From contig NZ_CP036319.1 of NCBI RefSeq assembly GCF_007752935.1, forward strand, positions 4,526,001-4,590,000: a stretch of DNA of 64,000 nt, written 5' to 3'. The stretch is from Crateriforma conspicua. Lineage in GTDB: Bacteria; Planctomycetota; Planctomycetia; Pirellulales; Pirellulaceae. This document shows, one piece after another, positions 44,225-61,498 of the stretch. Every line of letters starts with the position of its first letter. The stretch's first letter is position 1. The notes under the pieces were generated by a model. That model was not told where the DNA came from and searched no databases. It saw only the letters and a list, made by a program, of their open reading frames with translations. The position numbers were made by a program, and so were the translations under genes.

Positions 44225-44869
44225 TCAACGCAGCGGTTTTCGACCGTGGTGCTGGCGAACCTGATTGACCCACTGTAATGCTGCAGGTTGGCCACGCAAC
44301 AGACGGACGATCGCACTGGTCGACACGTTCCAATCATCCGCCACAAGGCTGGGTTGCCCGCCCGCGTCCCAAAGATCATCCAACAAGACCGCCAGCACCG
44401 ACGCCAGATTCGCGTTGGATGAAGCGATTCGAAGCGGCGTCCCCGCGTACTGATCGCGCCAGCGTCGCGCGACCGGGTCCTGAATCCGCGGATCGTCGAC
44501 CGACCGTGGATCAGTACGGACCGCAATCGCCAATTTCATCCGTAAACGTTGAAACGCCTCTCGTTGATTGTCGACTTGGCTTCGCCGTTCCGTGGCTTCA
44601 CCAATATGCCCGGTCGGAACATGAGTCCAGAAAATGCCCGTGCTGGTCTTATTTCGATGCTGACCGCCCGGACCGCTGCGACGCTGTGCCCTTCTTTCAC
44701 ACTGCCGCAACAAATCATCTTCATCGATCGTGGCGGGATGCGGATGCGGCACGATGGTGGCCGGAAATCGTTCGTCGGCTTCGGGTCGTTTCGCGCTGTG
44801 GTCATCACCGTCACGTTTGCCATGCCGGGCATCCGGGGTGTTGGAATCGTCAGTATCGTCACGCGACAT
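44225..44869 (-). CDS. peptide chain release factor-like protein (GGQ domain)
   Basis: 214 residues. Residues 50-120 carry the catalytic RF domain: RRSGPGGQHRNKTSTGIFW followed by HIGEATERRSQVDNQREAF. GGQ is the peptidyl-tRNA hydrolysis motif and the QxxNR-like part matches RF-H/ArfB-type proteins. The codon-recognition domains of RF1/RF2 are absent. The C-terminal ~90 residues (for example LASVLAVLLDDLWDAGGQPS and VSTSAIVRLLRGQPAALQWV) are unusual for ArfB and resemble a small helical domain. Probably ribosome rescue or a related function. It lies 33 nt downstream of the M50 gene and may share its mRNA. Confidence 0.8.
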   Translation of the reverse strand: MSRDDTDDSNTPDARHGKRDGDDHSAKRPEADERFPATIVPHPHPATIDEDDLLRQCERRAQRRSGPGGQHRNKTSTGIFWTHVPTGHIGEATERRSQVDNQREAFQRLRMKLAIAVRTDPRSVDDPRIQDPVARRWRDQYAGTPLRIASSNANLASVLAVLLDDLWDAGGQPSLVADDWNVSTSAIVRLLRGQPAALQWVNQVRQHHGRKPLR

Positions 44870-44902: not shown

Positions 44903-46960
44903 CTAAGACGAATGAATCCATCGTAACCAAGCCTCTTTGAGATGCCCGAGCAAGCTACGTGATTTCAGGTGAAAAACCGCGTGACATTCACCGCCCATGT
45001 CGGCCAACACATGCAGCGGTTCTGCTTCGGACGATTCAGCATTCAAGAGCGGACAGCTGACCTGATAGCTGGCCTGCTGCCAGGGCGACGACTCGGCGAC
45101 TTCATCACTGACCGACACGGATTCGACAAAGGAATGCCAGACTTGGCCAGGACGCGTCGCAACGGCCAAACTGACATCGACACCGCGAAAGATCTCGTCT
45201 CGATCCTCGGCGTCAATCTGCAAGACCGCAACCATCGATCCGTCGCGAGCGACACGGCACCAGCCCGACTCCGGTGCAACTCGCTGTCCCACACCTTGGG
45301 ATAACCCGATCGCTGACACACGCGTCCGATCGGCCGACCAGGACTGGGTGCGGTCCCAACGCGCCAGCGGTGGCAAAACCAGCCCTGCGTGCGGCGCGAC
45401 CACTTGAGTACTCGACAATGATCCTTCTGCGGATTGCCTTTTCGCAATGGCGGATTTGACCAACGATTGAGCACGAATCCAATGCTCTTGCTGACGCTGG
45501 TGATTGCCTGCCAAATTCCTGGCACCGGACAACTGCTGTTGGGCAACCGCGACTTCGGATGACGCACGAATCCATTCCAAACGCTGCTCACTCGAATCGA
45601 CTTCGGCCAGCACCGTGTTTCCATCGACCACATCACCAAAGCCAACCGAAACGCTTTTCAGCACGCTGGAATCTGGAAGATAGACCGCGGTTGCGGATCC
45701 GGAATCCAGATATCCGGTGGCGTATCGATACCGAGGCAGCGGCACCAGCAAAACAATCAACAGCAATCCCAGAATCGAGACCGCGAAGATCAATCGTCGT
45801 GGCGTTTCGACTTGCCCCCAAACCGATTGACCAGACGCCACGGCCCACCACCGTGTTGCCATCCGCGTCATCCAAACGATCAATGCCAGCGTGATGACGA
45901 GCGTCCCCAACCCACCGGCACCCGCCGCATCGAACAACCAAGCGACAAAGCCTGCGATGCTGACGAGAACCGTCAATCGATACGCCGTGGAAGCGACATG
46001 GTAGACCAGCATCCCAAACCTGCGGCGGGCGGTCCCCGGCATCGCCGCCGAGCGTCGTCCGACCAACCGCGTCACGATCCACTGGCGACTGCATTGAGCC
46101 GCTTCATGGCGAAGGTTCACACTGTGCACCCAATCGGCCAACACGTGGTATCCGTCGAAACGCATCAACGGATTGCCGTTGAACATCAACGTGCTGATGC
46201 CACACAAGACGATCAGATTCACACAAACCAATCGCATGGAAGGATCGTCGGATACCGACCAGACGATGACCGACAATGTCGCGATGATCCATTCGACGTA
46301 GATTCCCGCCAGCATCACGGCTGCGCGACGCCATCGAGACGCCTGACGCCAAACATCCGTCACATCACAATAGGGACACGGCATTCCGCAAAAGAAAAAG
46401 ATCCCAATCTTTCCCGGTGTCGCCCCCACGCGATGACAGGCAATCGCGTGCCCCAGTTCATGACAGATTTTGGTGAAGCACAACAACAGGAACGGTACCG
46501 CAACCGGCAACTGCCCCAAACGCTTGGGCAAAGCGGCCAGTTCCGATGCAAATACCTGGAACTGCAATAACAACAAAACACAAGCGACGACGGACAACCC
46601 GATCCAAAACTTCACTGCGATTCTTGCAAACAGCCAACTCGTCCAGCCCGAAAGCTTGGCGGCAATCGACGCGGCGGCAAACAAGGGGACTTCGACCGCC
46701 AAGGGCGAAGGCAATCGCCGGGCCGCCCCCAAACGTTGTCGCGTCCAGCCAACTCGCGCTGCTTGTTCCCAGTGTTCCGGATCAGCGTTCCCCGATTGAA
46801 GCCGTTCCCATAATCGCCGTGTGGTTTGTGCAAACGTCTTGCTGATGTCGCAATAGACGGTTCGGAACCGAGACTCGGTGCCCTCATGCAACACCTGCAA
46901 GTCGGTCCGCAACCGCGGTGACGTCACCGAATCGCCGACCGAGCACGGAGACGAACTCAT
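44903..46960 (-). CDS. M50 (site-2-type) metalloprotease fused to a HlyD-like adaptor
   Basis: 685 residues from ATG 46960. The N-terminal ~90 residues are cytoplasmic. Then a multi-pass membrane domain carries HELGH (167-171) in FTKICHELGHAIACH, a CPYC pair at 195-198 and the third metal ligand region NGNPLMRFDG (261-270), the full S2P zinc set. After a membrane helix (391-408) comes a HlyD-like biotinyl-lipoyl domain (TAVYLPDSSVLKSVSVGFGD), a coiled-coil hairpin (about 455-520) and a beta-barrel tail. It overlaps the upstream HlyD gene by ATGA. The fusion places a protease in the membrane linked to a periplasmic adaptor; substrate unknown. Confidence 0.85.
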   Translation of the reverse strand: MSSSPCSVGDSVTSPRLRTDLQVLHEGTESRFRTVYCDISKTFAQTTRRLWERLQSGNADPEHWEQAARVGWTRQRLGAARRLPSPLAVEVPLFAAASIAAKLSGWTSWLFARIAVKFWIGLSVVACVLLLLQFQVFASELAALPKRLGQLPVAVPFLLLCFTKICHELGHAIACHRVGATPGKIGIFFFCGMPCPYCDVTDVWRQASRWRRAAVMLAGIYVEWIIATLSVIVWSVSDDPSMRLVCVNLIVLCGISTLMFNGNPLMRFDGYHVLADWVHSVNLRHEAAQCSRQWIVTRLVGRRSAAMPGTARRRFGMLVYHVASTAYRLTVLVSIAGFVAWLFDAAGAGGLGTLVITLALIVWMTRMATRWWAVASGQSVWGQVETPRRLIFAVSILGLLLIVLLVPLPRYRYATGYLDSGSATAVYLPDSSVLKSVSVGFGDVVDGNTVLAEVDSSEQRLEWIRASSEVAVAQQQLSGARNLAGNHQRQQEHWIRAQSLVKSAIAKRQSAEGSLSSTQVVAPHAGLVLPPLARWDRTQSWSADRTRVSAIGLSQGVGQRVAPESGWCRVARDGSMVAVLQIDAEDRDEIFRGVDVSLAVATRPGQVWHSFVESVSVSDEVAESSPWQQASYQVSCPLLNAESSEAEPLHVLADMGGECHAVFHLKSRSLLGHLKEAWLRWIHSS

Positions 46961-48087
46961 CGCAAAATCTCCGAGCTTCGCCGATGTCGGCTCAGGCGAA
47001 TCTCTGCCTGCAAACTGGCTCGCGATGGCATCGTGCCGCGACGAACCGCAGGTTGACCCGTCAAGGGGATCGACGCACTTGAGACCGTCCCAAGGGGATC
47101 CGGCGTGGAAGGATGGAGCGTTGGTGACATGACCGCCACCGTCATGCGAATGTCTTGTCCCGGATACAGCATCCAATCGGCAATGCCATCGTGACCGATA
47201 CCGATCAATTGATTGGCGACGTCGACATGGATGCGGCGGTACCCACCAGGCAGCCACTGCGGATCCACCGATTCAACGACACCGTCCAATCGCCGCGTCT
47301 GTCGATTCCCGCCCTCATCCGCGACGTCCCACCGAATCGACACGGGACATCCCTGGCAATGCGAACGTCCGACGACCTGCTGGGAGATCAGCGCGTCGAC
47401 GGTCAGGTGTTCCAGACTGACAATCTTGGCAATCGGTTGGCCGCGTTCGGCCCATTCGCCGCCGTCTCGATAGACATCGACCAAGATCCCGTCGATTGGC
47501 GATCTTAACTGCAAGGCCAGACAGTCCGTGTCGATCTCCGCCAGTTCACTCTCTCGGATTCTCCACAGTTGCTCTGCCGCGTTGTGTTCGGCCAAGGCCT
47601 GGTCGTACTGTCGCTGGGCCTGAGACACGACTTGGGTCAACGCTCGAAACGCCGGATTGGCAAGGGAATCCGGTTCGCCGAAACGATTTCGATAGCGTCG
47701 CAATTCCTCTTTCGCAGCCGCCATCGCGGCTTCCGCATGATCCAACGTCGTCGTGTCTTCGGCTTGCGTCCGAGCCAAACGTAATCGCTCGATCGCAGTC
47801 TGCCGCTGACGGGTCAATCGATCATTGGTCAGCGTGACGATGACTTGGTTCTCGACCACGACCTGATTGCGTCCGACTGCCCATTGAGTCACCGCGCCGT
47901 CGGACAAGGCCGGTAGATCGATTTCGGTGCCGTAGCGGACAACGCACTGGCTGGCCTGGACATCAATGCGATTGACGCGGTCACCTTCCCCTTGGCCGCC
48001 GACAACGACCGAAGCAAACAGCATCCAAAAGCAAACCGAAGTGATCGGCAACGAGGCGGGACGAACGTTCATAGCGAGGCGAATCAT
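46957..48087 (-). CDS. HlyD-family periplasmic adaptor protein
   Basis: 376 residues: a signal/anchor (about 10-32, ITSVCFWMLFASVVVGG), lipoyl-half motif ALSDGAVTQWAVGRNQVV, a coiled-coil hairpin (about 92-180, LRLARTQAEDTTTLDHAEAA onward), the returning lipoyl half LRSPIDGILVDVYRDGGEWA, and a beta-barrel. The His/Pro/Ser-rich C-terminus may be unstructured. Such adaptors bridge inner-membrane pumps and TolC-type channels. Linked by 4-nt ATGA overlaps on both sides to the neighbouring genes, so stoichiometric synthesis is likely. Confidence 0.85.
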   Translation of the reverse strand: MIRLAMNVRPASLPITSVCFWMLFASVVVGGQGEGDRVNRIDVQASQCVVRYGTEIDLPALSDGAVTQWAVGRNQVVVENQVIVTLTNDRLTRQRQTAIERLRLARTQAEDTTTLDHAEAAMAAAKEELRRYRNRFGEPDSLANPAFRALTQVVSQAQRQYDQALAEHNAAEQLWRIRESELAEIDTDCLALQLRSPIDGILVDVYRDGGEWAERGQPIAKIVSLEHLTVDALISQQVVGRSHCQGCPVSIRWDVADEGGNRQTRRLDGVVESVDPQWLPGGYRRIHVDVANQLIGIGHDGIADWMLYPGQDIRMTVAVMSPTLHPSTPDPLGTVSSASIPLTGQPAVRRGTMPSRASLQAEIRLSRHRRSSEILR

Positions 48088-50336
48088 GTCGATGCCTCCG
48101 TCTTCTTGAGTGTGCCAAAGTGAAGCCCCCAGAACGATCGCACCGAATCAATGGCGTCACGGAACAAGACGTATGCCAGCGGTGACGTCCCACAGTGGAA
48201 ACGAACTCGCACCGGCATCCCCTCGTGAGGAATCGTGGCAACGAAATCCTCGCTTGCCATCGCATTCCCGGCCGTATTTATGCGTGCGGGCGACGCGACG
48301 GGCTTCCGCGAATCAAAGGAACCCCGCGAAGCCACCTCGCTGGAATCCTCCGATATCGATAGGTGGTCGGGCAAAGCCAACTGCACCAGGGTCGCCGAAC
48401 CGGATTCTGATTCGATGGCGGGTCCGATCGATTTCACGGCGGCATCCCAGCGGACATCGGGCTGGGCGACGGGGGAAACGGCCACTGACAAATCACCCGA
48501 GTCGCCCGAGAGCATCAGATCGCCCATGCGACGCTGATCGACTTCCGCTTCGGCATTCCAAGCGGTGCCCAACTGCACCACTTTCAACAACGGTTCGCCG
48601 AATCGCACCGGTCGATCGATCAAACGTTGCCGCAACCGCCAAGCATCGACGATTCCGGATTGTTTTGCGGTCACGTGAAGTGAAGCTTCGACGCTGCGCA
48701 GATGCTCTAGTTGGGCGTCGATCCCATCGATTCGCAACTCGGTGACACGACGACGCGAATTGGCTTGCGACCGTGCCGCAGACCGATCGCCGGCGGGATG
48801 AATCAGATTCTCCGTTTCCACGGCCAATTCGGCCTCCAGCCGCAAACGTTCCGAACGCAGTTGTTTGATCTGCTGTTCCAACGTTTCATCTTTCAGCGTC
48901 AGCAATGGATCGCCGACTTCGACACGATCGTTGTGACGCACATAGATGGCGTCCACCACCGCGTTGCGGGGCGAACAAACGCTTTGCCACTGTTGGGGTC
49001 GCAACACCGCCGGTGACGTCACGATATTCGGGACAGGCATCGCCCCCACGATGATTGCGGCCAATGCTCCCAGCCCGGTCATCCACTGGCGTCGGTAACG
49101 CTGATACCACGAACCATGCATTGCACCGGAGGGCGCAAGCCAACGCCCCAGTACCGAACGATTCGTTGCCGATGACTTGATGTCGACGGCGATGCCCGCC
49201 ATTCGGCAAAGCCGGATCAGATGGTCACGATGGTCTTCGGCACACCCGGCATGGTTGACATTTCTCAGCCCGATCAAGGCCAGATCACTGGACGTTCCCA
49301 CGCGAACCAGACAATCCAACACCAAGCTTGCATCTTGGTCGTCACCATCACCGACGTCACGATCGGGATTGAAATAGCATCCGTTATCGTCGACCGGTGT
49401 TTGAAGCGATTGTTGCAAAATCCAGCGGACCGCTTCGCTGTGTCGATCAACTTGGTCAACGTGGCTGACGGCAATCACTTCGCGTGGCCGTTCGCGTCGT
49501 ACCACGGCAACACGATCGAGATGAAAACCTTCGGCGACCAAATCGGCCAATGATTCGATGACGCTGCGTGGGTCCGACAATCGGCTCCATCGATCGAATT
49601 GTTGGTCGATCCAATGCGATAGCGAGGCATCGTCGCGAAGTCGCCGGATCAATTGGCGACGCATGAATTCACCCGCCAAGTCGGCCATCTGGGCGACAAA
49701 CCGCAGATAGCCTCGTTGCGTGACGGTGCCCCCACCGGATTCCAGATGGACTTCAATCAAGTAGGTGGCGTCGGAGCCTGAAGATTCACCCATATCGGTG
49801 TCGATCGCGACCACGGCGACGGGGTGCGGCGACGGATTGGCGGGCTGTTCGGGGTCAGCCGCACCGGGCGTGGACGGCACCACCGCGGGACCGGCACCGG
49901 TCGCAATTTCGTGCAACATGCATTGATGCGATTGCCGGGCCGCATTGGTCCAGTCTTGGAAATCAACATTGCCCAACCGGTGACAGATATCAAACTCCGT
50001 CGCCGATGCTTTTCGCCAAACGGTGACTCCCTCGGCCGCCATCGCCCGCAGAATGCGATCGGCAAGAAATGCCCAATACCTTGATTCCGGCATCTGGGCG
50101 GTCGCCGCCGCGGCCACCTCGCGAACGATATCGGAGATTTCGCGTTGGGCATCGCGGACCAAGCCTTCCCCGGATTCAACCGTCCGGCCCGATCGACGCG
50201 CAGCATCCGGCGGTGCCGTCGCTGTTGCGGCGGCGGCACGATAGACAAATGGCTGCTGGGGTGCGGCGTGTTTCACGCGATCGCGTCGATGTCCAGGGAT
50301 GCGGACGTACCGATGACATTCTGAGATGCCAAGCAT
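48084..50336 (-). CDS. cytoplasmic GAF-like sensor fused to a HlyD-like adaptor
   Basis: 750 residues. The first ~400 are soluble, with two GAF-like segments (about 85-230 and 255-385; the second begins SVIESLADLVAEGFHLDRVA). A membrane helix at 418-437 (WMTGLGALAAIIVGAMPVPN) follows. Then comes a periplasmic HlyD-type part: lipoyl half VDAIYVRHNDRVEVGDPLL, a coiled coil (485-570), the second lipoyl half around SGIVDAWRLRQRLIDRPVRF and a barrel to the C-terminus. The GAF assignment is from pattern, not a search. It could sense a cytoplasmic ligand and signal to the adaptor side. It overlaps the HlyD gene by ATGA (48084-48087). Confidence 0.75.
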   Translation of the reverse strand: MLGISECHRYVRIPGHRRDRVKHAAPQQPFVYRAAAATATAPPDAARRSGRTVESGEGLVRDAQREISDIVREVAAAATAQMPESRYWAFLADRILRAMAAEGVTVWRKASATEFDICHRLGNVDFQDWTNAARQSHQCMLHEIATGAGPAVVPSTPGAADPEQPANPSPHPVAVVAIDTDMGESSGSDATYLIEVHLESGGGTVTQRGYLRFVAQMADLAGEFMRRQLIRRLRDDASLSHWIDQQFDRWSRLSDPRSVIESLADLVAEGFHLDRVAVVRRERPREVIAVSHVDQVDRHSEAVRWILQQSLQTPVDDNGCYFNPDRDVGDGDDQDASLVLDCLVRVGTSSDLALIGLRNVNHAGCAEDHRDHLIRLCRMAGIAVDIKSSATNRSVLGRWLAPSGAMHGSWYQRYRRQWMTGLGALAAIIVGAMPVPNIVTSPAVLRPQQWQSVCSPRNAVVDAIYVRHNDRVEVGDPLLTLKDETLEQQIKQLRSERLRLEAELAVETENLIHPAGDRSAARSQANSRRRVTELRIDGIDAQLEHLRSVEASLHVTAKQSGIVDAWRLRQRLIDRPVRFGEPLLKVVQLGTAWNAEAEVDQRRMGDLMLSGDSGDLSVAVSPVAQPDVRWDAAVKSIGPAIESESGSATLVQLALPDHLSISEDSSEVASRGSFDSRKPVASPARINTAGNAMASEDFVATIPHEGMPVRVRFHCGTSPLAYVLFRDAIDSVRSFWGLHFGTLKKTEAST

Positions 50337-50455
50337 CGGGGACTAGCAAAACCCGGCCTTCATCAGCAACGGCAATCCGCCCGGCGACCAGCGTCGGCAT
50401 GCCCGCCCCGCCGCCGAATGCCTCGTTCCGTAATGGCTTTCCCGCGGACCGCTGG

Positions 50456-51772
50456 TCAACGCCCCGGCTTCAACCTCCATTCCGATCGCTGTCTGGCCTG
50501 ATGGCGATCGGCCGGTGATGAAAACCCCAACGACTGGACGTCCAATCCCCAGGTCGGATCCGCACGACAAAACTGAAAGCCGTGGTCACGCGGATCTTCG
50601 CCTTGGCGTCTGATCTCAAACGCCAAGGCCACATCGCTGACCAGCGTCTGGCAAGGCTTCGATACGCCCGCACATTGATAGCCCTGGTGAACGGGACGAT
50701 GATCGGAAGCCGCGATACGCCTGACCGAAGCCCAAGACGACTGTTCCTGATCCGAAGCCTCCGCAAGGATCGCGACCGCCGCCGCGCGAGTGATCGGCGA
50801 TGCGATCGGATCTTTCAGCCGGCGATGTGCGATCTGTCGCGTCCACGATGGATCACAGTAAGCTGCCATGGCACGCAAATGCCGATCGTCGACTTCCGAG
50901 GTCGGCAGGCTTCGCAACCAATGGTCGGCAACGGTGTCAAAGATCGTGTCCGAATCCTTGGCGACATCGACACCATGATGCCAAGTCGATGTCGCACAGC
51001 GCGAAAGGCAATCAATCATCGCCGACGTCGCGATGCGTCGTGCCGCGGTGGGTTGAACCGCCGTTATTGATCCCGGCGTCTGGCTTTGGCTCACGAGATT
51101 TTGGTTTTGCAGATACAAATCCAAAACCAGCACACTGAGCGTTCGGCATCGTTGATGAATGGGATCCACACGCCCGTCATTCGTCGTGAACGAGAACTCA
51201 CGGTACAAGCTTGACCAAGGATCATCCATCTGTGCCGGAGCACAGACACCGCGATCGTCGAATGCTTGAAACAGCGAATGACAACGGCGGACCATTTCGG
51301 CGAATCGATCGCGAGTCTGCCACGTGTCACCCACCAGTCGCACATAGACCGACCATCCGGGAATACGAATCGGCACGGCCGAAGCGTGCGGCGGCTGATC
51401 CAATGCGTCGACGCGTTCTTGCCATTGTCGATCTTGGTACCGCATCAAAACTCGAGCGGCAGAAAATCGCAATTGCAGATCGCGACTGGTGGTGGCACGG
51501 CGGACCTGACGCAGTAGTTGCATCTGTTGCGACGATCCATCCGGCAATTGCCGCAAAACGTCCAACAGATCCGTCGACGCCCGATTTCGACTCAGGTACG
51601 AATCCGATGCCAGCGCGATCAATCTTGGATCACTGGGAATCGATTCGGCGCGATTCAACTCCATCCGCTGATGCGAACCGGCATCGGCGAACAACGGCAT
51701 CGAATTGGCCGACGCCAGAATTGCAAAGAACGAAAGAACTCGCCAATCCAAACGCACGCGGTCGCCCCACAC
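50456..51772 (-). CDS. secreted helical (HEAT-like) protein of unknown function
   Basis: 438 residues: signal peptide (VLSFFAILASANSMPLFADA, about 12-31) followed by mostly helical sequence with repeat-like pairs (LIALASDSYLSRNRASTDLL, LQLRFSAARVLMRYQDRQW, ITRAAAVAILAEASDQE), which recall HEAT/armadillo repeats. No catalytic motif. It lies 119 nt upstream of the GAF-HlyD gene on the same strand and is probably the first gene of the adaptor/protease operon. It could be the system's substrate or a periplasmic partner; that is inference. Confidence 0.7.
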   Translation of the reverse strand: MWGDRVRLDWRVLSFFAILASANSMPLFADAGSHQRMELNRAESIPSDPRLIALASDSYLSRNRASTDLLDVLRQLPDGSSQQMQLLRQVRRATTSRDLQLRFSAARVLMRYQDRQWQERVDALDQPPHASAVPIRIPGWSVYVRLVGDTWQTRDRFAEMVRRCHSLFQAFDDRGVCAPAQMDDPWSSLYREFSFTTNDGRVDPIHQRCRTLSVLVLDLYLQNQNLVSQSQTPGSITAVQPTAARRIATSAMIDCLSRCATSTWHHGVDVAKDSDTIFDTVADHWLRSLPTSEVDDRHLRAMAAYCDPSWTRQIAHRRLKDPIASPITRAAAVAILAEASDQEQSSWASVRRIAASDHRPVHQGYQCAGVSKPCQTLVSDVALAFEIRRQGEDPRDHGFQFCRADPTWGLDVQSLGFSSPADRHQARQRSEWRLKPGR

Positions 51773-56220: not shown

Positions 56221-56952
56221 CTAGGAAACCCGTCGCCTGCGACGAACCATTCCAGCCAAGCCACAAAAGGTCAAAGCGGCTAAGCTGGCGGGTTCAGGAA
56301 CCGCGACGACTCCGGTAATCTGTGGATCGGTGAAGGTTCCAGAGTCGAAGTGGCTGATGATTCTCCATGTACTATCCTCGTCCATGTCTTCTTCTCCTGG
56401 TATCGATGGACTAGCCGGTGTGACTCCTCCAACGTTAAGGAATCGCAGACGAAAGTCTCCGGTGACGGTACCGATGGATGCCAGGCTGATGATGCTGTTG
56501 CTAAAGTTGCTGTCCTCATCGATGGTGGCGATGGCCGTTGTAAATCCGTCAGTCGACGCGAAAACCCCAATCTGACTTGGACCGCTTGTAGACGACCTGG
56601 TTCCAATAATCAATTCATCTAGGGTCGCAGAATATCCCGGATCGAGCGAAAAGCCGATCTCCACGTAACCGTTGGGATTTAGCACCGTCGGGGCACCATC
56701 CAAATTAATGGCCCAATTGTCAGAATTGAAAGCGTTGTTCGTTGGTGTGTACTGAAGCCCCCCGCCACGAGTCATGTCGATCCCTGTGACTCCGGTAAGA
56801 GTGGTATCGCCAGCGACACTATCGCGGACACCGCTGTCAGTATCGCTATAGGGAAATGCCGCGTATGAAACAATGATGTCGGCGTAAACAGGAAGGCTGG
56901 TTGCGGCCGAAAGCAGAGCAATGCCAAGGCTGAAGAAGTTGAAAGATCTCAT
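56221..56952 (-). CDS. PEP-CTERM sorting domain protein
   Basis: 243 residues: signal peptide (MRSFNFFSLGIALLSAATSL, cleaved near ADI), a beta-rich body (for example GYVEIGFSLDPGYSATLDEL and TGDFRLRFLNVGG), and a C-terminal PEP-CTERM tail VPEPASLAALTFCGLAGMV followed by six basic residues. The tail is recognised by exosortase, so the protein is exported and anchored or released at the surface. No exosortase gene is in the window. The gene and its flank look less GC-rich than the surroundings, which may mean recent acquisition. Confidence 0.9.
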   Translation of the reverse strand: MRSFNFFSLGIALLSAATSLPVYADIIVSYAAFPYSDTDSGVRDSVAGDTTLTGVTGIDMTRGGGLQYTPTNNAFNSDNWAINLDGAPTVLNPNGYVEIGFSLDPGYSATLDELIIGTRSSTSGPSQIGVFASTDGFTTAIATIDEDSNFSNSIISLASIGTVTGDFRLRFLNVGGVTPASPSIPGEEDMDEDSTWRIISHFDSGTFTDPQITGVVAVPEPASLAALTFCGLAGMVRRRRRVS

Positions 56953-60901: not shown

Positions 60902-61498
60902 ATGTCCTCCGTCCCGTGGTGGCGTCGCTTCTATGCGACCGCCGTCTTTTATCCCACGCTTGCCTGGAACTACTTGCTGGGCCGCGTGCTGAAGACGCGT
61001 CGATGGTGGGACTTTGTCGACACCAACGTCATCGTCGGTGCTCGTCCATTTCCTCGCGATGTCAGCAATTTGAACGAGGCCGGAGTCCGTGCGGTGGTCA
61101 ACACGTGCGAAGAATACGCCGGCCCGATCGTTGAATACGACCAGTTCGGCATTGATCAACTGCACATCCCGACGACCGACTTTACCCACCCACGCCTGGA
61201 AGACGTACGCATCGCGGTGGATTTCATTCAGTCCTATGTCAGCGAAAACAAGACGGTCTATGTGCACTGCAAAGCGGGGCGTGCACGCAGTGCGACCGTG
61301 GTGATGTGCTGGCTGATTCAGTACCGCGGCATGACTGCCGAACAGGCCCAGCAAGCTCTGCTAAAAGCACGGCCGCACGTCAATCCCCATCTGTATCGCC
61401 GGCCGGTCGTCACCCAGTTCGTTCAATCGCTGGGTGACGACGCTTCGGACCATTCACCGGCGGCGTCGACCGCCGTTACAGGGGAGCCTCACCGCTGA
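60902..61498 (+). CDS. PTPMT1-like dual-specificity phosphatase
   Basis: 198 residues. The P-loop VHCKAGRARSATVV carries the catalytic Cys (C123) and Arg of the HCx5R motif. The opening FYPTLAWNYLLGRV, the WWDFVDTNVIVGARPFPRDV region and NTCEEYAGP follow the mitochondrial PTPMT1 pattern, whose members dephosphorylate phosphatidylglycerophosphate during cardiolipin synthesis. A lipid phosphatase role at the membrane is therefore likely, though protein substrates cannot be excluded. The gene overlaps the 3' end of the convergent TolC-family gene by 23 nt. Confidence 0.88.
   Translation: MSSVPWWRRFYATAVFYPTLAWNYLLGRVLKTRRWWDFVDTNVIVGARPFPRDVSNLNEAGVRAVVNTCEEYAGPIVEYDQFGIDQLHIPTTDFTHPRLEDVRIAVDFIQSYVSENKTVYVHCKAGRARSATVVMCWLIQYRGMTAEQAQQALLKARPHVNPHLYRRPVVTQFVQSLGDDASDHSPAASTAVTGEPHR

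What the first reader, a model, noticed from the sequence alone, without database searches (positions are those of the whole stretch)
44903..51772. Operon of two HlyD fusions, a HlyD adaptor and a secreted protein without a transport ATPase
Four leftward genes encode a secreted HEAT-like protein, a cytoplasmic GAF-like domain plus membrane helix plus HlyD adaptor, a HlyD adaptor, and an M50 protease (HELGH, NGNPLMRFDG) plus HlyD adaptor. Two ATGA overlaps (48084-48087 and 46957-46960) couple the last three. HlyD adaptors normally serve ABC, RND or MFS pumps; none is encoded here. Three different adaptor chains, one tied to a sensor and one to a site-2 protease, suggest a mixed adaptor ring that could link cytoplasmic sensing, intramembrane proteolysis and an outer membrane channel.
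Basis: partly seen in the sequence, partly recalled or inferred. Interest (0 to 1): 0.78.

Follow-up and report, generated by a model that had tools for sequence, protein, structure and literature searches.

The report
Pump-less adaptor trio with protease
Three co-transcribed membrane-fusion (adaptor) proteins, one joined to a sensor part and one to a membrane protease, form a copy of a little-studied bacterial export module that has no classical pump and probably handles giant surface proteins carrying a short shared N-terminal tag.

Summary
In detail: four leftward genes, two ATGA couplings, M50-HlyD, HlyD and GAF-like-TM-HlyD proteins, no pump gene beside them. The kind is known: Kamneva et al. 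2015 (PMC4452313) describe GAF/HlyD, M50/HlyD and HlyD proteins next to a secondary SecA. This genome carries six copies; 59 of 60 genomes searched (own included) have the M50 protein. In 80 homologous loci a same-strand ABC signature within 6 kb occurs once, SecA-like in 11, TolC in 7. The secreted gene is lineage-specific; the protein at 61476 is not a supported partner. New here: giant proteins beside many modules share an N-terminal LE-x-R-x-x-[LF]-[DSN]-[AG] (LEPR-XLL-type) tag. A tag profile (E <= 0.002) found 11 of 13 module-bearing and 0 of 276 module-less alphaproteobacterial genomes, and 24 of 53 against 5 of 233 in a verrucomicrobial class. Best reading: a non-ABC, TolC-linked export route for tagged giant proteins, the M50 part recognising or cleaving the tag. 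The window copy has no linked cargo, SecA or TolC and would act in trans. Export, cleavage and energising are inferred, not shown.

The parts
44903..46960 (-). M50 site-2 protease domain fused to HlyD-type adaptor (685 aa, ATG start); HELGH at residues 167-171, NGNPLMRFDG at 261-270
   Evidence: H167, E168, H171, N261, D269 invariant in 53 rows; model, Foldseek
46957..48087 (-). Periplasmic HlyD-type adaptor (376 aa) with a hydrophobic N-terminal stretch
   Evidence: (HlyD_3 1.8e-9), homology, hydropathy
48084..50336 (-). Cytoplasmic double GAF-like region, predicted TM helix about 410-432, HlyD-type adaptor (750 aa)
   Evidence: searches (HlyD_D23 1.8e-8; GAF in 32 of 47 homologues), model, Foldseek
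50456..51772 (-). Predicted secreted protein, 438 aa, no known family; upstream on the same strand but lineage-specific, doubtful part of the module
44225..44869 (-). RF-1-domain (peptide release factor-like) protein, 214 aa, 33 bp downstream of the M50 gene; same linkage in 5 of 6 window-clade loci, the window included
   Evidence: (PF00472 2.5e-13)
48084..48087 (-). ATGA stop/start overlap between GAF-HlyD and HlyD genes
46957..46960 (-). ATGA stop/start overlap between HlyD and M50-HlyD genes

Best explanation
The operon is one of six copies, in this genome, of a non-ABC, type-I-like export module. Proposed working: giant surface proteins without an obvious N-terminal hydrophobic signal carry a leader ending in an LE-x-R-x-x-[LF]-[DSN]-[AG] tag. 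The tag is recognised in the cytoplasm by the N-terminal (in some members PqqD-like) part of the M50-HlyD protein. A SecA-type motor (module-linked in some loci, otherwise in trans) drives the chain across the inner membrane. The adaptor chains form the periplasmic conduit to a TolC-family channel, and the M50 site clips the tag or gates the path. The GAF part of the membrane-anchored adaptor senses a cytoplasmic ligand. The window copy lacks linked cargo, SecA and TolC, so it would use partners encoded elsewhere: two SecA_DEAD proteins besides the canonical one, and at least four tagged proteins not beside a module, exist in this genome. Shown: domain content, recurrent gene neighbourhood, scarcity of pumps beside it, conserved catalytic residues, co-occurrence of tag and module. 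Inferred: export, tag recognition, tag cleavage, energising by SecA, and use of these partners by the window copy.
For: Both other adaptors lie within 6 kb of the M50 gene in 49 of 66 loci with at least 2.6 kb upstream, any adaptor in 61 of 66; in 43 of 66 they are upstream on the same strand in the window's order, in 1 of 66 swapped. SecA-like in 11 of 80, TolC in 7 of 80, same-strand ABC signature in 1 of 80. Plasmid loci with giant protein, TolC, adaptors and M50-HlyD: Variovorax, E. coli, Citrobacter, Azospirillum, Kosakonia and, with NCBI's own label LEPR-XLL, Thalassospira; SecA annotated in Alisedimentitalea. Tag on adjacent giants. Tag profile at E <= 0.002: 11 of 13 module genomes, 0 of 276 others in Alphaproteobacteria; without four training genomes and two near-identical kin 5 of 7 against 0 of 276, Fisher 1.4e-9. 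Verrucomicrobial class: 24 of 53 against 5 of 233. HExxH, N261 and D269 invariant in 53 rows. PqqD in 12 of 55 M50 proteins; daptide and YydH protease models match 55 of 55. Own genome: three SecA_DEAD proteins, one inside a module. The window-clade genome of L041 has five LEPR-8K matches over the cut-off.
Against: The window clade (6 loci) has no tag, TolC or SecA beside it, so its cargo is unknown. By the strict motif only 8 of 80 loci have a tagged protein in reach. The 0.002 threshold was set after seeing the list: at 0.01 it is 11 of 13 against 2 of 276, at 0.05 11 of 13 against 20 of 276; in the verrucomicrobial class at 0.01 26 of 53 against 7 of 233. 29 of 53 verrucomicrobial module genomes show no tag at 0.002 and 5 module-less genomes do. 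NCBI's own LEPR-8K model matched 6 of 289 alphaproteobacterial genomes at E <= 0.01, only two of them with the module. Module genomes may be larger and richer in giant genes; related genomes are not independent. PqqD is not matched by Pfam in the window protein. No experiment was available.
Confidence: 0.5

Rival explanations
1. Signalling link: the GAF chain senses a cytoplasmic signal, the M50 chain performs regulated intramembrane proteolysis, and the adaptors couple this to an outer membrane channel; no protein cargo.
For: GAF-like domains and an intact M50 site in the window clade; no cargo, TolC or SecA beside the window clade.
Against: In related loci the recurrent companions are other adaptors, and where more is linked it is often TolC, SecA-like or a giant tagged protein. 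Some modules have a membrane adaptor of under 580 residues, too short for two GAF domains (TMshort rows).
Confidence: 0.12
2. Orphan adaptors serve an unlinked ABC, RND or MFS pump; the M50 part is an accessory.
For: The adaptor halves fold like MacA, MexA and EmrA, which act with such pumps; pumps can be encoded elsewhere.
Against: Within 6 kb a same-strand ABC signature in 1 of 80 loci and an opposite-strand one in 2 of 80; same-strand proteins with at least 8 predicted TM segments in 2 of 80, identity not resolved. Several plasmids carry the module with TolC but no pump listed in the operon.
Confidence: 0.15
3. RiPP-like peptide maturation and export: the M50-HlyD protein cleaves and exports a small leader-bearing peptide.
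For: Daptide and YydH/LiaK protease models match 55 of 55 M50 proteins; PqqD (leader-binding in RiPP pathways, recalled) in 12 of 55.
Against: The window protein scores 122.7 of 300 and 30.4 of 225 bits, far below the cut-offs; adjacent cargo-like genes are giant. Small precursor ORFs were not searched for.
Confidence: 0.1
4. A decaying or redundant copy of the module without present function.
For: No linked cargo, SecA or TolC; N-terminus of the window M50 protein shorter than in the paralogues (alignment).
Against: dN/dS 0.13-0.26 for the trio against the same-genus genome, catalytic residues intact, trio kept in all six window-clade loci.
Confidence: 0.05

Closest known systems
Secondary SecA_DEAD / type-I-like locus of Kamneva, Poudel and Ward 2015 (PMC4452313; abstract, sections 16 and 17 and passages read)
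   Same: GAF/HlyD, M50/HlyD and HlyD proteins encoded together, no ABC transporter; a version with SecA and TolC lies elsewhere in this genome (L031)
   Different: The window copy has no linked SecA; the paper's main text does not contain 'giant', 'LEPR' or 'cadherin' and calls the role unknown, whereas a tagged giant cargo class is proposed here
Type I secretion system (HlyB-HlyD-TolC) and MacAB-TolC type tripartite assemblies
   Same: Adaptor fold (MacA best Foldseek match for both fusions); TolC linked in a part of the loci
   Different: No ABC exporter beside it; two of three adaptors are fusions; N-terminal candidate signal (C-terminal signals of type I substrates are recalled)
Daptide (NF041824) and YydH/LiaK (NF058609) M50 proteases of RiPP pathways
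   Same: M50 sequence models that match all 55 aligned members
   Different: Window protein below the cut-offs; fused to an adaptor; known neighbours in related loci are giant proteins
LEPR-XLL (NF012209, LEPR-8K) N-terminal motif of very large proteins
   Same: Tags beside the module match or resemble it; the Thalassospira cargo carries that name
   Different: Here broadened to LE-x-R-x-x-[LF]-[DSN]-[AG] (including FDAA types) and tied to an export module

Membership tests
Kamneva secondary-SecA type-I-like module | M50/HlyD, HlyD and GAF/HlyD proteins encoded together | tested here: met
   neighbourhoods
Kamneva secondary-SecA type-I-like module | Secondary SecA_DEAD protein in the neighbourhood | tested here: not met
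   None beside the window locus; two SecA_DEAD proteins besides the canonical one elsewhere, one in module L031. Filed therefore as a SecA-less paralogous variant, not as a complete member
Type I secretion system | ABC exporter with the adaptor | tested here: not met
   No ABC gene among the genes read beside the operon; same-strand ABC signature in 1 of 80 homologous loci
Tripartite periplasmic adaptor (HlyD/RND_mfp) | Barrel-sandwich and hairpin adaptor fold | tested here: met
   (the two fusions modelled; the middle protein by Pfam only)
Peptidase M50 site-2 protease | HExxH and a distal Asp (N-x-NP...DG) in a membrane domain | tested here: met
   invariant columns; 27.4 bits over cut-off 27.2; profile hit to MJ0392 3b4r, E 4.5e-4
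Peptidase M50 site-2 protease | Proteolytic activity | not testable with these tools
   No assay
GAF domain | GAF fold in the cytoplasmic part | tested here: inconclusive
   No Pfam match in the window protein; GAF in 32 of 47 homologues; short PDB profile hits to sensor proteins; compatible model; no GAF structure among the 50 Foldseek rows shown
Daptide/YydH RiPP protease | Score over the equivalog cut-off | tested here: not met
   122.7 of 300 bits and 30.4 of 225 bits
Daptide/YydH RiPP protease | RiPP precursor gene nearby | not tested
   Small ORFs were not examined for precursors
LEPR-XLL cargo link | Tagged giant protein beside the window operon | tested here: not met
   No strict tag in the window or in the five other window-clade loci; tagged proteins exist elsewhere in the genome

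The most novel reading that the evidence does not exclude
LE-x-R (LEPR-XLL-type) tags are the address label of a further, non-ABC protein export route of Gram-negative bacteria, in which a PqqD-like/M50/adaptor fusion reads and cuts the tag, a SecA paralogue (or SecA itself) supplies force, and mixed adaptor rings dock to TolC. The window operon is a GAF-regulated, cargo-unlinked copy serving several tagged proteins in trans.
Probability: 0.35. Interest if true: 0.87.

Novelty: new variant of a known kind. Interest (0 to 1): 0.62.

Why it matters
The 2015 module has had no stated cargo in the sections I read, and LEPR-XLL turned up in only two papers of the held library, neither giving it a role in export in what I saw (one passage of one paper read). 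Linking the two makes both testable: it predicts which giant surface proteins depend on the module and which residues matter. If true it adds a protein export route found in planctomycetes, verrucomicrobia, rhizobia, Azospirillum and some enterobacterial plasmids.

Tried and rejected
Rejected: GTG 47257 as start of the M50 protein (ATG 46960 fits the coupling). Rejected: the 61476 protein as the module's TolC (no Pfam OEP up to E 1; best domain -3.7 bits against the module TolC profile; no meaningful PDB match); it may still be an outer membrane factor. Rejected: the secreted 438-aa protein as a core part. No PADLOC defence match for the four proteins or the L031 SecA. A second structural aligner for the GAF question was unavailable. 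NCBI's LEPR-8K model was too narrow, so a 21-row tag profile was built. Literature searches: (8 of 10 allowed); PMC4452313 was the only listed paper that I judged relevant to the module. PMC10868602: one passage; all other papers: listings only. Supplements were not consulted, so Kamneva's clusters 4 and 5 are known to me only from figure legends.

Limits: the gene picker for fetched loci is crude (homology first, then longest ORF), so absences are lower bounds on presence; one search kept the best 80 of 590 relatives; 12 plasmid loci were opened of 81 and 78 records matched, picked by me for variety; the 38-residue tag profile gives noise-level matches above about E 0.003; A5 was built from module-linked proteins, hence the repeat without training genomes; the 0.002 threshold was chosen after the result.

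Full report
1. Observation. Searches confirm the four leftward ORFs and both ATGA overlaps. The M50 gene starts at ATG 46960 (685 aa); the longer GTG frame overlaps the upstream gene. Pfam and NCBIfam give Peptidase_M50 and, by NCBIfam RND_mfp below its cut-off, an adaptor half for the last gene, HlyD_3/biotinyl-lipoyl for the middle one and HlyD_D23/HlyD_3 for the GAF-like fusion. The secreted 438-aa protein matches nothing convincing. Against the same-genus genome G001, dN/dS is 0.13 (M50), 0.26 (HlyD), 0.18 (GAF-HlyD) and 0.25 (secreted).

2. GAF and adaptor folds. The window's own GAF region is not matched by Pfam, but 32 of 47 aligned homologues are matched by GAF PF01590. A profile of 19 N-terminal regions has four PDB hits up to E 0.01: two histidine kinases (6oap, 8k9o) and phytochrome-like Cph2 (4bwi), which I recall as GAF-type sensors, over 40-50 residues, and one designed helical protein. 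The AlphaFold2 model (mean pLDDT 79.7, pTM 0.50) shows two alpha/beta domains, long helices, one helix at 410-432 and an adaptor. Foldseek puts MacA first for both fusions (50 rows shown each). The M50 model (mean pLDDT 84.0) has the membrane domain followed by an adaptor with hairpin helices of 27 and 29 residues. H167, E168, H171, N261 and D269 are invariant in 53 rows, and the profile also hits the archaeal S2P 3b4r (E 4.5e-4).

3. One of six. The genome holds six M50-HlyD proteins. The five other loci: L030, giant tagged DUF4347 protein on the other strand, then TolC, HlyD, TM-HlyD, M50-HlyD; L031, TolC, SecA-like, HlyD, TM-HlyD, M50-HlyD; L029, divergent TolC, then TM-HlyD, HlyD, M50-HlyD; L027, GAF-HlyD, HlyD, M50-HlyD, with a tagged ORF about 4.5 kb away; L028, GAF-HlyD and M50-HlyD only. 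The genome has three SecA_DEAD proteins: the canonical one, that of L031 and one elsewhere. Of 60 genomes searched (own included), 59 have an M50-HlyD match at E <= 1e-30.

4. Homologous loci. A scan of genome contigs gave 80 loci (the best 80 of 590, so nearest to the query). Of 66 with at least 2.6 kb upstream, 53 have the TM/GAF adaptor within 6 kb, 57 the other adaptor, 49 both and 61 at least one; in 43 of 66 both lie upstream on the same strand in the window's order, in 1 of 66 in the swapped order. SecA-like proteins occur in 11 of 80, TolC in 7 of 80, an ABC signature on the same strand in 1 of 80 (L074) and on the other strand in 2 of 80; same-strand proteins with at least 8 predicted TM segments in 2 of 80 (L073, L094), not identified further.

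5. The window's own clade. A quick tree of 104 M50 proteins places the window with five loci (L133, L041 of Rhodopirellula maiorica SM1, L134, L135, L136; SH-aLRT 100), all with the trio and none with SecA, TolC or a tag beside it. The secreted gene is found only in the window and L133; an RF-1-domain gene follows the M50 gene in five of these six (window, L133, L041, L134, L135).

6. Prior description. Kamneva et al. 2015 (PMC4452313; abstract, sections 16 and 17, and passages) report GAF/HlyD, M50/HlyD and HlyD proteins next to secondary SecA_DEAD proteins in Planctomycetes, Verrucomicrobia, Proteobacteria and others, note the missing ABC transporter, and suggest secretion with SecA_DEAD as ATPase and M50 as pore. 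They call the broader role completely unknown. So the kind is known; the window is a SecA-less copy.

7. Cargo tag. Giant proteins beside the module share an N-terminal tag: LESRQLFDGA (E. coli and Citrobacter plasmids), LEARYMFDAA (Variovorax), LEPRMLFDGA (Kosakonia), LEPRFMFDAA (Azospirillum), IEPRILLSAD (Thalassospira, named LEPR-XLL by NCBI), LEPRVLLNAD (Methylosinus), LEPRLLLSAD (Mesorhizobium and, in an upstream in-frame extension, Rhizobium), LEPRLLLAAD (Alisedimentitalea, same kind of extension), LEPRMMFDAA, LEARIAFDAA, LEPRYLLSAD (alphaproteobacterial genomes), LEPRLLLNAA (a verrucomicrobium), LEDRILLSGE (this genome, L030). Of 12 plasmid loci opened (chosen by me), 10 have such a tagged protein, Phyllobacterium's large neighbour has none, and in Azospirillum ramasamyi the N-terminus lies off the record start. 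Among 821 other ORFs in the 90 loci (in 10 loci, 8 of them among the 80) carry LE.R..[LF][DSN][AG] within the first 150 residues; 6 of the 38 that are at least 1000 aa long do. Of 21 tagged N-termini, 18 have more K+R than D+E before the tag, and 18 have no 15-residue window above a mean hydropathy of 1.6 (the other three reach 1.69-1.75), so a classical Sec signal is not obvious in most; some starts are uncertain.

8. Co-occurrence test. In 289 alphaproteobacterial genomes 13 carry the M50-HlyD protein. The tag profile (A5, 21 rows) at E <= 0.002 found 11 genomes, all among those 13; G173 and G211 were missed; 0 of 276 others matched. Twenty module-less genomes match at E 0.004 to 0.05 (two of them below 0.01), which I take for noise; the threshold was set after seeing this. 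Leaving out the four genomes that gave profile rows and two near-identical kin, 5 of 7 against 0 of 276 (Fisher 1.4e-9). In 286 genomes of a verrucomicrobial class 53 carry the module; tags at E <= 0.002 in 24 of 53 against 5 of 233 (Fisher 1e-15), 23 of 52 against 5 of 233 without the training genome, and at E <= 0.01 26 of 53 against 7 of 233. Of the 24 double-positive genomes 16 have tag and a listed module on one contig, and in 11 they lie within 20 kb. NCBI's narrower LEPR-8K model at E <= 0.01 matched 6 of 289 alphaproteobacterial genomes, two with the module. Caveats: phylogenetic non-independence, genome size, partial assemblies.

9. Mechanism. I infer an export route: tag read by the M50-HlyD N-terminus (PqqD in 12 of 55 members; NCBI names two such plasmid proteins PqqD family), force from a SecA-type motor, adaptors to TolC, M50 cutting or gating. 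None of these steps is shown. For the window copy cargo and motor must be encoded elsewhere: this genome has six LEPR-8K matches at E <= 1 (four over the cut-off), one beside module L030; four of the other five re-read as tags. The window-clade genome of L041 has seven such matches, five over the cut-off.

10. Verdict. Real, conserved, and already described in kind; the local variant (GAF trio without linked SecA or TolC) is a paralogous clade. The new and testable element is the tag-module link.

Noticed in passing
window 44225-44869: RF-1-domain (release-factor-like) gene follows the M50 gene by 33 bp; the same linkage in 5 of 6 window-clade loci (window, L133, L041, L134, L135).
   Followed up: partly
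L189 11324-11620; L186 9690-10010; L192 10748-11053; L200 27978-28358: A small DUF3467 gene sits directly after the tagged giant gene in Thalassospira, Methylosinus, Mesorhizobium and Rhizobium module operons; possibly a cargo chaperone (speculation).
   Followed up: no
L022, L023, L190 (E. coli, Citrobacter and Kosakonia plasmids): Plasmids of enterobacteria carry an operon of giant Ig-like protein with the tag, TolC, adaptors and M50-HlyD, without a SecA gene listed beside it.
   Followed up: partly
L030 3-5213 (own genome, about 2.63 Mb): Tagged DUF4347/LamG/cadherin protein in an open frame of 8497 aa next to a module.
   Followed up: partly
L194 and L201: Annotated starts of two giant genes (Alisedimentitalea, Rhizobium) look too short: the in-frame upstream stretch holds the LEPR tag.
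   Followed up: partly
L032 8213-10471 (own genome, about 3.28 Mb): A further SecA_DEAD protein (752 aa), 39% identical to the module SecA of L031 over 507 residues, with no M50-HlyD call in its locus.
   Followed up: partly
window 56221-56952: Protein with a PEP-CTERM sorting signal (E 3e-4).
   Followed up: no
   Followed up: partly
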